This document shows positions 28,504-32,094 of a stretch of 64,000 nt of DNA, one piece after another. This DNA is from Haloplanus vescus. GTDB lineage: Archaea; Halobacteriota; Halobacteria; Halobacteriales; Haloferacaceae. The stretch's first letter is position 1, and the number at the start of each line of letters is the position of its first letter. The stretch spans positions 186,001 to 250,000 of the forward strand of contig NZ_FNQT01000003.1 of NCBI RefSeq assembly GCF_900107665.1, in the 5' to 3' direction. A model generated the notes under the pieces. That model saw only the letters and a program-made list of their open reading frames with translations. It made no database searches and was not told where the DNA came from. The translations under genes and the position numbers were made by a program.

Positions 28504-29991
28504 TCAGATCGGGTACTCCCGCGGTTCGTGCTGGATGGATATCCACTTCGTCTCGGTGATTTCGTCGAGGAAGGCGTCGCTGTTGTAGGTGCCGACGCCC
28601 GAGGCACCGATACCGCTGAAGGGGACGTGGGCCTCGTCGTTGATTGGCTGGTCGTTGATGTGGACGTTGCCCGTCTCCATGCGCTCGGCGATGTCCTTCG
28701 CGACGGCGAGGTCCTGCGAGTGGACGGCGCCGGAGAGGCCGTACTCGGTGTCGTTGGCGAGTGCGACGGCCTCGTCGACGTCCGAGAACGGAATCACGGG
28801 GGCGATGGGGCCGAAGTGCTCGTTGCACGCCGCCGCCATGTCGTTGGTCACGCCCGAGAGCACCGTCGGCGCGACGACCAGCGAGTCGTCGACGCCCTCG
28901 ACCGGCACCGTCTCACCGCCGGTTTCGAGCGTCGCGCCCGCGTCGACCGTCTCCTCGACGTAGCCGAGCATCTCGTCGCGCTGTGACTCGTCGATGATGG
29001 GGCCGACGACGGTGTCCTCGTCGTGGACGCTCCCGACCGAGAGGGATTCGGCGCGCTCGACCAGACGCTCGACGTACTCGTCGTAGATGTCCTCGTGGAC
29101 GATGTGGCGGTTGATGGAGATACACACCTGTCCCTGATGGACGAAGGAGCCGAACGTCGCGGCGTCGACGGCGCGGTCGAGGTCGGCGTCTGCCGCCACG
29201 ACGTGAGCGTTGTTGCCGCCGAGTTCCATCGCCGGGACCGCGAGGTTCTCGCCCGCGATGCCCGCGACGCGCCGGCCGACCGACGTCGACCCGGTGAAGG
29301 CCACTACGTCGCTCTCGGGGTGACCCGCGACTCGGTCGCCGATGTCGGACCCGCGTCCCGTCACGACGTTGATGAGGCCGTCGGGGAGGCTGGTCTCCGC
29401 GAACAGCTTCGCGAAGAGCAGGCCGCCCGTAATCGGCGAGTTCGTCGACGGCTTGAGGACGACTGCGTTGCCGGCGGCGATGGCCGGTGCCACGGCCCGC
29501 ATCGAGAGATTCAGCGGGAAGTTCCACGGCGAGATGACCGTCACGACGCCTTTCGGACTGCGCTCGACGAGGTTCTCCTTGCCCGGAATGTTCGAGGCGA
29601 CGTGTTCGCCTTTCATCCGCCGGGGGAGCGTCGCGGCCTCCGTCGCGTGGTCGGTCGCAATCTGCATCGACGTCTCGCCCATGAGCGTCGACCCGCCCAC
29701 CTCGTGTTCGAGGAGGTGGGTCACGTCGTCGTGGTGGGCCTCCAGCACGTCGAGGAACTCCTCGATGACTGCCTGTCGGCGGGCGAGGGGTTGCTCGGCC
29801 CACTCCGCCTGTGCGGCCGCGGCGGCCTCGTACGCGTCGTCGACGTCTGCCTCGGTGCCCGCGGCCACCGTCGTCACCGTCTCGCGGGTCGAGGGGTCCT
29901 CCACCGCGATGGTTTCACCGCTCGCTGCGTCGGTCCACTCTCCGTCGATGAAGAGTGCGTCCCAGTCCGCGTCGATGGAGAAGTCTGCCAT
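28504..29991 (-). CDS. NAD(P)-dependent aldehyde dehydrogenase
   Basis: ALDH superfamily enzyme oxidising an aldehyde to the acid. In 495 residues: cofactor motif ISPWNFPLNL (about 150), Rossmann loop FTGSTSVGRRVA (about 225), catalytic Glu in MELGGNNAHVV (about 250) and catalytic Cys in HQGQVCISINRH (about 284). Family members with this NNAHVV motif include benzaldehyde- and succinate semialdehyde-type dehydrogenases; the substrate cannot be set. An ATG at 29989-29991 is chosen; a TTG two codons earlier is possible. Divergent from the biotin operon. Confidence 0.93.
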   Translation of the reverse strand: MADFSIDADWDALFIDGEWTDAASGETIAVEDPSTRETVTTVAAGTEADVDDAYEAAAAAQAEWAEQPLARRQAVIEEFLDVLEAHHDDVTHLLEHEVGGSTLMGETSMQIATDHATEAATLPRRMKGEHVASNIPGKENLVERSPKGVVTVISPWNFPLNLSMRAVAPAIAAGNAVVLKPSTNSPITGGLLFAKLFAETSLPDGLINVVTGRGSDIGDRVAGHPESDVVAFTGSTSVGRRVAGIAGENLAVPAMELGGNNAHVVAADADLDRAVDAATFGSFVHQGQVCISINRHIVHEDIYDEYVERLVERAESLSVGSVHDEDTVVGPIIDESQRDEMLGYVEETVDAGATLETGGETVPVEGVDDSLVVAPTVLSGVTNDMAAACNEHFGPIAPVIPFSDVDEAVALANDTEYGLSGAVHSQDLAVAKDIAERMETGNVHINDQPINDEAHVPFSGIGASGVGTYNSDAFLDEITETKWISIQHEPREYPI

Positions 29992-30071
29992 CGTCAATAC
30001 GAGGGCCCAGACACCGAAAAGGAGCGCGTACGCGGAAATCGTCGCTGGTTGTCACGTCTGCCGGCAGATTT

Positions 30072-30103
30072 TCGTAAACCAGAATTTACTAAGTGGTTTA
30101 CGA
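30072..30103 (+). promoter_or_regulatory. BirA-box-like biotin operator
   Basis: TCGTAAACCA at 30072-30081 and TGGTTTACGA at 30094-30103 form a perfect 10-base inverted repeat with a 12-base spacer. Counted as GTAAACC-N14-GGTTTAC, this matches the published BirA consensus TTGTAAACC-N14/15-GGTTTACAA reported for bacteria and some archaea. It ends 13 bases before the bioY ATG and spans the expected TATA position (TTTACTAAG in the spacer), so bound repressor would block TBP/TFB. Confidence 0.85.
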
Positions 30104-30116
30104 GAGAGGGGTGGGT

Positions 30117-30701
30117 ATGTCGGCTTCGACGGATTCGGTCGAGTTGGTCGGCGACGAGGCGACGGGCAACATCGCCCGGGCGGTGCTGTTCGCGGCCGCG
30201 ACCAGTGCCACCGCCCCGGTCGATATGGTTCATCCGCTCGCCCCGAACGTACCCATCACGCTCCAGACGGTCTGGGTGTATCTCGCGGGCGTCGTCCTCG
30301 GCCCCCTGTGGGCGGGCGTCGCCTTCACGCTCTACCTGCTCGCAGGCCTCATCGGCCTCCCCGTGTTCGCCGGTGGGAACGCCGGGCTGGGCGTCATCCT
30401 CGGCCCGACTGGCGGCTTCCTGATTGGCTTCCCACTCGCCGCGATGACTATCGGCGCTGTCGTCCACGGGCGCGACGGGTTGACGCCGCCGAGCGAGGTC
30501 CCGATTCCGCGACTCGTCGTCGGGTTGCTCGCGGGGACAGCCGTCGTCTACGCCGCCGGTGCGGTGGGGTACTCGCTCGTCCAGGCCATCGGTCTCGTGG
30601 CCGCGGTCAGCGCCGTCGTCGTTCCCTTCCTGCCCGTGGCGGGCCTGAAGATTGCGGCGACGGTCGCCATCGTCCGCAGCGACGCCATCGTCGCCCGATG
30701 A
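30117..30701 (+). CDS. bioY: Biotin ECF transporter S component BioY
   Basis: Substrate-binding membrane subunit for biotin uptake. The 194 residues have about six membrane helices and the BioY signatures NVPITLQTVWVYLAGVVLGP (about residue 42) and GLPVFAGGNAGLGVILGPTG with GFLIGFPLAAM. The start is the ATG at 30117, right after the BirA-like operator. The stop overlaps the next gene as ATGA (30698-30701), typical of a coupled bioYMN operon. Confidence 0.95.
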   Translation: MSASTDSVELVGDEATGNIARAVLFAAATSATAPVDMVHPLAPNVPITLQTVWVYLAGVVLGPLWAGVAFTLYLLAGLIGLPVFAGGNAGLGVILGPTGGFLIGFPLAAMTIGAVVHGRDGLTPPSEVPIPRLVVGLLAGTAVVYAAGAVGYSLVQAIGLVAAVSAVVVPFLPVAGLKIAATVAIVRSDAIVAR

Positions 30702-31393
30702 TCACCGTCGACGGCTACACGTATCGCTACGACGACGTGGCGGCCGTCGACGACGTGTCTCTCACCGTTGACGACGGCGAGTGTGTCGTCCTCGCCGGCC
30801 CCAATGGGTCTGGAAAGACCACGCTCGTCCGCGGGTTCAACGGCCTCCTGACCCCCGACGAGGGCGAGGTGCGCGTCAACGGCCGGCCCGTCGCCGACGA
30901 CCTGGTCGCCGCCCGCACCAGCGTCGGGATGGTGTTTCAGGACCCCCGCGACGGCTTCGTCGCCGCGACGGTCGGTGCCGACGTGGCCTTCGGCCCCGAG
31001 AACCTCGGACTCGAACGCGACGAAATCGACCGCCGCGTCGCCGACGCACTCGACGCCGTGCGGATGGCCGGGCGCGAGGACGACCGGGTCGCCGACCTCT
31101 CGGGCGGCGAACGCGAACGCGTCGCCATCGCGGGCGCGTTGGCGATGGACCCCGACCACCTCGTTCTCGACGAACCCTTCACCGGCCTCGACCTTCGCGC
31201 CCGCGAGTCGGTGCTCGACCGCCTGCGCGCTCTGCGTGAGTCTGGCGTCAGCGTTGTCGTCGTCACGCACGACCTGCGGGACCTCTACTCGCTGGCCGAC
31301 CGGGTCGTCGTCCTCTCGGACGGGTCGGTCGCGCTCGACGCGGCGTCGCCGTCGGCGTCGGAACTGGAAGCGCTCGGCGTCCGCCCGCCATGA
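30698..31393 (+). CDS. bioM: Biotin ECF transporter ATPase BioM
   Basis: Energy-coupling ATPase of the biotin importer, 231 residues. Walker A GPNGSGKTTLVRGFNGLL (about 36), Q-loop FQDPRDGFVAATVGADVAF, signature DLSGGERERVAIAGAL, Walker B LVLDEPFTGLD and switch His in VVVTHDLRDL. The FQDPRD motif with GPENLGL is characteristic of EcfA proteins. Four-base overlaps join it to bioY and bioN. A single ATPase implies an EcfA homodimer. Confidence 0.94.
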   Translation: MITVDGYTYRYDDVAAVDDVSLTVDDGECVVLAGPNGSGKTTLVRGFNGLLTPDEGEVRVNGRPVADDLVAARTSVGMVFQDPRDGFVAATVGADVAFGPENLGLERDEIDRRVADALDAVRMAGREDDRVADLSGGERERVAIAGALAMDPDHLVLDEPFTGLDLRARESVLDRLRALRESGVSVVVVTHDLRDLYSLADRVVVLSDGSVALDAASPSASELEALGVRPP

Positions 31394-32094
31394 GGTTCGA
31401 CGCGACGGGCGACACCGTCGTCAACCGCCTCGACCCCCGCGCCAAACTGTTCGTGCAGGCCGCCGTCGCCGTCGCAGCCTTCGCCCACACGTCGCCGCGC
31501 GGCCTCCTCGTCCTCACCGCCTTCGCCCTCGGCGTCTGCTGGGTGGCGGCGACGCCGGTGGTCGACAGCCTGCGCTCCTACCGCGCCTTCCTCCCCTTTC
31601 TCGTCGCCGCGCCACTCGTGGAGGGGGCGACGCTCGGGGCGCCGTGGTTCGTCCCTGCCGATGCCGTCGGACCCGGACTGGCCAGCTACCGCGTCGTGGT
31701 GCTTCTGCTCGTCTCGACGGCGTACATCCGCACGACGCCCGTTCGGGAGTCTCGCGCCGCCATCCAGTCGCTTCTCCCGGGTCGGGTCGGCGTCGTCCTC
31801 GGCGCCGGCGTCGGGTTCGTCCTCCGATTTCTCCCCTTGCTCCGCGACGACCTCTCGACGATTCGCGCGGCGATGCACGCCCGACTGGGGACGGCCCGGT
31901 CGCTCCGCGAGCGCATTCGACTCGTCGGCGTGACGGGACTTCGCCGGGTGTTCGGCCGCGCCGACCGGTTCGCGCTCGCGCTTCAGGCCCGCTGTTTCGC
32001 GTGGAATCCGACGCTCCCACCGCTTGCGCCGACGTGGCGGGACGTTCCCGCCGTCGCCGTCGGCGTGGCGTTGCTGGCGTGGGCCGTCTGGTGA
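31390..32094 (+). CDS. bioN: Biotin ECF transporter T component BioN
   Basis: Transmembrane coupling subunit EcfT, 234 residues with about five helices. The coupling-helix motif region reads RADRFALALQARCFAW, where EcfT proteins typically have Ala-Arg-Gly (here Ala-Arg-Cys). NRLDPRAKLFVQAAVAVAA at the start is the usual EcfT N-terminus. It is the last gene of bioYMN; no biotin synthesis or ligase gene is adjacent. Confidence 0.9.
   Translation: MRFDATGDTVVNRLDPRAKLFVQAAVAVAAFAHTSPRGLLVLTAFALGVCWVAATPVVDSLRSYRAFLPFLVAAPLVEGATLGAPWFVPADAVGPGLASYRVVVLLLVSTAYIRTTPVRESRAAIQSLLPGRVGVVLGAGVGFVLRFLPLLRDDLSTIRAAMHARLGTARSLRERIRLVGVTGLRRVFGRADRFALALQARCFAWNPTLPPLAPTWRDVPAVAVGVALLAWAVW

What the first reader, a model, noticed from the sequence alone, without database searches (positions are those of the whole stretch)
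30072..30103. BirA-type biotin operator over the promoter of an archaeal bioYMN operon
TCGTAAACCA-N12-TGGTTTACGA is a perfect palindrome directly before bioY and lies across the expected TATA position. In the known BirA consensus form it is GTAAACC-N14-GGTTTAC. The published biotin regulon analysis proposed BirA sites in some archaea; here the site directly precedes an ECF biotin uptake operon, making repression of uptake by biotinyl-AMP-bound BirA likely. It is one of the clearest regulatory sites in the window.
Basis: partly seen in the sequence, partly recalled or inferred. Interest (0 to 1): 0.7.

Follow-up and report, generated by a model that had tools for sequence, protein, structure and literature searches.

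The report
BirA biotin-switch site in salt-loving archaea
The perfect DNA palindrome before the biotin-uptake genes is almost certainly where the biotin-sensing repressor BirA sits to switch uptake off; it is shared by nearly all salt-loving archaea examined, so it is a well-supported archaeal example of a switch already known from bacteria.

Summary
Confirmed. TCGTAAACCA-N12-TGGTTTACGA at 30072-30103 is a perfect 10-bp inverted repeat, equal to the published BirA signal (GTAAACC-N14-GGTTTAC core), ending 13 nt before the bioY ATG, with an AT-rich box (TTTACTAA) in its spacer at the TATA position. It is the only exact match in the genome (a Haloplanus-like haloarchaeon). That genome encodes one BirA with HTH_11, ligase and C-terminal domains, and lacks BioB.

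Both refutation tests were passed. The operator stands before bioY in both congeners and in 75 of 80 named haloarchaeal bioY loci found by BioY alone. The same signal precedes bioB in biotin-making haloarchaea (51 of 55 in one register) and some biotin-carboxylase genes. Five genomes whose BirA lacks a recognisable HTH have no operator anywhere. In Halalkalicoccus the spacer is N13 at bioY and at bioB, pointing to one trans-acting dimer.

Relative to a constant AT-rich box near -28, the operator covers that box in bioY, but the start codon in bioB, where its right arm encodes residues 2-3 (Val-Tyr). Binding and biotin response remain untested. An archaeal BirA signal was proposed in 2002, so this is a new, well-supported member of a known kind.

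The parts
30072..30103 (.). BirA operator: 10-bp perfect inverted repeat TCGTAAACCA-N12-TGGTTTACGA
   Evidence: conserved before bioY in relatives
30085..30092 (+). Putative TATA box TTTACTAA inside the operator spacer, about -32 to -25 from the bioY ATG
   Evidence: AT-content peak at -30 to -25 in 54 aligned bioY promoters; transcription start not mapped
30117..30701 (+). bioY, substrate-binding S component of the biotin ECF transporter; putative leaderless start
   Evidence: PF02632 E 1.5e-34
30701..31393 (+). bioM-type ECF ATPase
   Evidence: PF00005 E 1.9e-31; TIGR04520 E 1.9e-65, below that model's own cut-off
31390..32094 (+). bioN-type (CbiQ-like) ECF T component
   Evidence: PF02361 E 2.3e-15

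Best explanation
The palindrome is the operator of the genome's bifunctional biotin ligase/repressor BirA, laid over the TATA box of a leaderless bioYMN promoter. When biotin is plentiful and the carrier protein is fully biotinylated, BirA holding biotinyl-AMP dimerises and puts one winged helix-turn-helix on each half-site, keeping TBP/TFB off the promoter so that uptake stops; when biotin is scarce BirA is monomeric and transcription proceeds. Shown here: the site, its placement, its conservation, the HTH-bearing BirA, and the shared site before bioB and some carboxylase genes. Inferred: that this BirA binds it, that biotinyl-AMP is the corepressor, the direction of the response, and the leaderless start.
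For: (1) Arms and spacing equal the published BirA consensus TTGTAAACC-[N14/15]-GGTTTACAA; the haloarchaeal variant GTCAACC-N14-GGTTGAC equals the predicted Geobacter/Desulfuromonas BirA sites (PMC545781). (2) BirA has HTH_11 (4.6e-13), BPL and BPL_C domains and aligns over HTH and ligase with E. coli and S. aureus BirA. (3) Conservation: 119 of 130 bioY upstreams score at least 12/14 against 0.4% of shuffles and 0 of 130 for the reversed half-site; 75 of 80 in a set chosen by BioY only. Eight of 14 arm positions carry 1.87-2.0 bits; most spacer positions carry below 0.6 bit apart from an AT-rich core. (4) Independent promoter: bioB carries the same signal, 51 of 55 in one register. (5) No operator anywhere in five genomes whose BirA lacks HTH_11, against 47 of 60 genomes of the window's family. 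(6) Spacer N13 at bioY in six genomes of one genus and at bioB in the one that has it. (7) Recognition-helix residue 3 is Asn or Thr in 22 BirAs; none of their operators is of the pure GTAAACC/GGTTTAC form, against 36 of 66 with Ala (not corrected for kinship).
Against: No binding, expression or start-site data for this organism. No second operator in this genome. The five HTH-less genomes are only 59-86% complete. Two genomes (G026, G038) have an HTH-bearing BirA and a divergent bioY without operator, though their bioB has one. Nearly all haloarchaea have HTH-BirA, so co-occurrence has limited power.
Confidence: 0.92

Rival explanations
1. The palindrome is the operator of another biotin-related repressor, not BirA.
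For: No direct binding evidence; other biotin regulators (BioR, BioQ) exist in bacteria (general knowledge; BioR in PMC4554459, title and abstract only).
Against: Half-site, spacing and its A/C variant all equal bacterial BirA signals; operators are absent where BirA lost its HTH; helix residue associates with operator base. The genome was not scanned for BioR or BioQ homologues.
Confidence: 0.05
2. It acts as an RNA hairpin in the bioY leader (attenuator or translational switch).
For: The stretch folds well as RNA, z -3.4.
Against: The AT box sits inside the palindrome, so the transcript probably starts downstream of it; in bioB the right arm is coding. Only 55 of 113 operators have fully complementary arms; position L3/R5 pairs in 72% and L2/R6 is G/A in 11. 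No Rfam hit.
Confidence: 0.02
3. BirA binds but activates uptake, or mainly controls the divergent aldehyde dehydrogenase gene.
For: A divergent ALDH gene starts near 29991.
Against: The distance to bioY is fixed in relatives and the site covers the bioY TATA box, a repressor position; ALDH conservation in relatives was not examined.
Confidence: 0.01

Closest known systems
BirA regulon (Rodionov, Mironov and Gelfand 2002, Genome Res 12:1507, 'in Eubacteria and Archaea')
   Same: Same palindrome, spacing, target genes (bioY, bioB) and link between the BirA N-terminal domain and sites. Paper not held here; known through citing papers and memory.
   Different: Here the haloarchaeal regulon is seen across many species, with promoter geometry, a carboxylase target and lineage variants. 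Which archaea that paper covered could not be checked.
E. coli / S. aureus bifunctional BirA
   Same: Winged HTH plus ligase plus C-terminal domain in one protein.
   Different: Acts on a TBP/TFB promoter; mostly uptake in auxotrophs; its gene here follows a biotin-carboxylase/carrier gene.
Predicted delta-proteobacterial BirA sites (PMC545781)
   Same: GTCAACC-N14-GGTTGAC form, identical to the haloarchaeal variant.
   Different: Bacterial promoters, mostly bioB/bioF/bioW.

Membership tests
BirA operator | Inverted repeat GTAAACC-N14/15-GGTTTAC | tested here: met
   Exact at 30074-30101
BirA operator | Located at the promoter of biotin synthesis or uptake genes | tested here: met
   13 nt before the ATG of bioY in bioYMN
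BirA operator | Conserved at orthologous promoters | tested here: met
   Both congeners; 75 of 80 named loci
BirA operator | Same signal at a second biotin operon | tested here: met
   bioB in relatives; this genome has no bioB
BirA operator | Bound by BirA with biotinyl-AMP | not testable with these tools
   Needs EMSA or ChIP
Group II BirA (ligase plus repressor) | N-terminal winged HTH | tested here: met
   HTH_11 E 4.6e-13; TIGR00122 E 2e-14 but 53 bits, below its 70-bit cut-off
Group II BirA (ligase plus repressor) | Biotin ligase catalytic domain | tested here: met
   TIGR00121 169.8 bits, cut-off 83.1; GRGR and KWPND motifs in the sequence
Group II BirA (ligase plus repressor) | Ligand-induced dimerisation | not testable with these tools
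   Biochemistry needed

The most novel reading that the evidence does not exclude
One haloarchaeal BirA operator represses by two promoter geometries: over the TATA box (bioY, some carboxylase genes) and over the start codon, with its right arm encoding Val-Tyr (bioB). Its geometry can drift in concert within a genus (N13 in Halalkalicoccus; a direct repeat in Halostella bioY) along with the BirA recognition helix.
Probability: 0.5. Interest if true: 0.55.

Novelty: new member of a known kind. Interest (0 to 1): 0.42.

Why it matters
It gives a clean, class-wide case of a bacterial-type, ligand-sensing enzyme-repressor acting on a eukaryote-like archaeal promoter, with a genetically tractable group (Haloferax) carrying both bioY and bioB operators. 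It makes archaeal BirA repression directly testable, supplies paired promoters with the same operator over TBP versus over the start site, and offers natural specificity variants of operator and HTH; PMC4016012 (2014) states that how E. coli BirA binds its operator in detail was unknown.

Tried and rejected
Sigma-70 promoter and terminator scan: none, as expected for an archaeon. Rfam: no hit. RNA-hairpin reading: folds well, but arms are often not complementary in relatives. Near matches with 2-3 mismatches in the own genome: not separable from the reversed-pattern control (23 matches against 17). Operator before the own carboxylase-birA operon: best 10/14, not accepted. The second BPL-family hit in the genome (L006) looks like a lipoate-type ligase, judged from domain score and sequence only. 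An N15 palindrome in G073 (L037/L098) and one site in G244 (L200) are not next to an identified bio gene and are within chance expectation. Halalkalicoccus N13 could not be tied to one BirA residue. A Pfam call with a bad reference failed and was repeated.

Full report
OBSERVATION. The palindrome is exactly as described: TCGTAAACCA (30072-30081), 12-nt spacer GAATTTACTAAG, TGGTTTACGA (30094-30103). As GTAAACC-N14-GGTTTAC it is unique in the window, with 0.45 matches expected even at 3 mismatches, and the only hit with fewer than 2 mismatches in the 2.78-Mb genome. It precedes bioY-bioM-bioN-like genes; the bioY ATG is at 30117.

REGULATOR. The genome has one BirA: 308 aa, HTH_11 at residues 5-56, BPL 84-204, BPL_C 259-304. 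Sequence search aligns it over HTH and ligase with E. coli BirA (1bia) and S. aureus BirA. birA follows, with overlapping ends, a biotin-carboxylase/carrier gene; no convincing operator lies before that gene in this genome (10/14). BioB was not found, so the organism is probably a biotin auxotroph relying on uptake.

CLOSE RELATIVES. The same-genus genome G199 carries GTCAACCACTACGTACTAAGTGGTTTAC, and G268 GTCAACCAATATGAACTAAGTAGTTTAC, both before bioY. G199's bioY region (contig length 472914) corresponds to Haloplanus ruber, so the window is most likely from Haloplanus.

BREADTH. In a 243-genome sample of the order, exact palindromes (N13-16 allowed) occur in 46 genomes, nearly all N14; of those inspected most lie just before bioY and nearly all others before bioB. 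With the half-site GTMAACY, 119 of 130 distinct bioY upstreams score at least 12/14; shuffles reach this in 0.4%, and the reversed half-site never exceeds 10. Part of that set was fetched by the palindrome itself, so the unbiased figure is: loci found by BioY alone, 75 of 80 at 12/14 or better (N13-15 allowed), including Haloferax, Halorubrum, Halobacterium salinarum, Halogeometricum and Halorussus species. Arm positions are near invariant while most spacer positions drift, apart from an AT-rich core, which is what a two-half-site protein over a promoter box would leave.

SECOND AND THIRD TARGETS. bioB-bearing haloarchaea carry the operator at bioB: 51 of 55 in exactly one register, the right arm being xTG-GTT-TAC, i.e. 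start codon plus Val-Tyr; GTG starts in 38 of 45. Biotin-carboxylase genes carry it in some lineages: 9 of 30 unselected loci at 12/14 or better, all 58-81 nt upstream, plus two found by the operator itself. Gene identities for bioB and carboxylase rest on sequence signatures and homology, not on a Pfam scan.

GEOMETRY. Measured from the start codon, the AT-rich box is at about -30 to -26 in both bioY and bioB, but the operator arms flank that box in bioY and lie at about -19 to -13 and +2 to +8 in bioB. In Haloferax volcanii 72% of protein-coding transcripts are leaderless (PMC4983044), which fits. Thus the same operator would block TBP/TFB binding at one promoter and initiation or escape at the other; this is inference.

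LINKS TO BirA. (a) Five genomes whose BirA lacks HTH_11 (G002, G016, G019 truncated; G015, G030 divergent N-terminus) have no operator anywhere, even with the degenerate pattern, against 47 of 60 genomes of the window's family. They are draft genomes, 59-86% complete. (b) The 15 genomes without BirA show no exact palindrome, and none of those listed has BioY. (c) In genus g27 (Halalkalicoccus, via G057) the spacer is N13 at bioY in six of six genomes and at bioB in G057. (d) Helix residue 3 Asn/Thr (22 BirAs) goes with at least one C-type half-site (GTCAACC or GGTTGAC) in every case; with Ala, 36 of 66 are pure A-type. This is not corrected for kinship and Ala also occurs with C-type sites.

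LITERATURE. The consensus TTGTAAACC-[N14/15]-GGTTTACAA and the GTcAACC-N14-GGTTgAC variants are printed in PMC545781. The 2002 paper proposing a BirA signal in archaea is not in the library. No held paper found describes a haloarchaeal BirA operator; absence from this library is weak evidence. PMC3102087 notes that all but one of ten haloarchaeal genomes have BPL and BioY.

VERDICT. A BirA operator controlling biotin uptake, with high confidence; binding and response untested. It is a new, richly supported member of a known kind, with some new anatomical detail.

Noticed in passing
L169, L173, L187 and other bioB loci: The bioB operator's right arm is read as codons 1-3 (xTG GTT TAC), so regulation and the BioB N-terminus (MVYETGN) are locked together.
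   Followed up: yes
L032, L139, L141, L144, L145 (genus g19; L141 is Halostella pelagica): bioY has a direct repeat GTMAACC-N15-GTAAACC just upstream of the likely TATA box in place of the inverted repeat.
   Followed up: partly
L154-L156, L284-L286 (bioY) and L275 (bioB), genus g27 (Halalkalicoccus): Operator spacer shortened to 13 at bioY and also at the one bioB found.
   Followed up: partly
L218, L219, L221, L222, L225, L229, L230, L238, L242: Operator 55-68 nt before biotin-carboxylase genes, absent before the carboxylase of the window's genome.
   Followed up: partly
G239 C3:68094-69152, G129, G170, G025: bioB homologues with one in-frame TGA, possibly broken genes or assembly errors.
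   Followed up: no
L197 and L198 (G259); L288 and L289 (G036): Two bioB copies, and two bioY copies, each with its own operator.
   Followed up: partly
30093-30116: An in-frame GTG inside the operator could be called as the bioY start (as the ORF lister does); the ATG at 30117 fits relatives better.
   Followed up: partly
28504-29997: Divergent aldehyde dehydrogenase gene shares the intergenic region; the operator is about 75 nt or more from its start.
   Followed up: no
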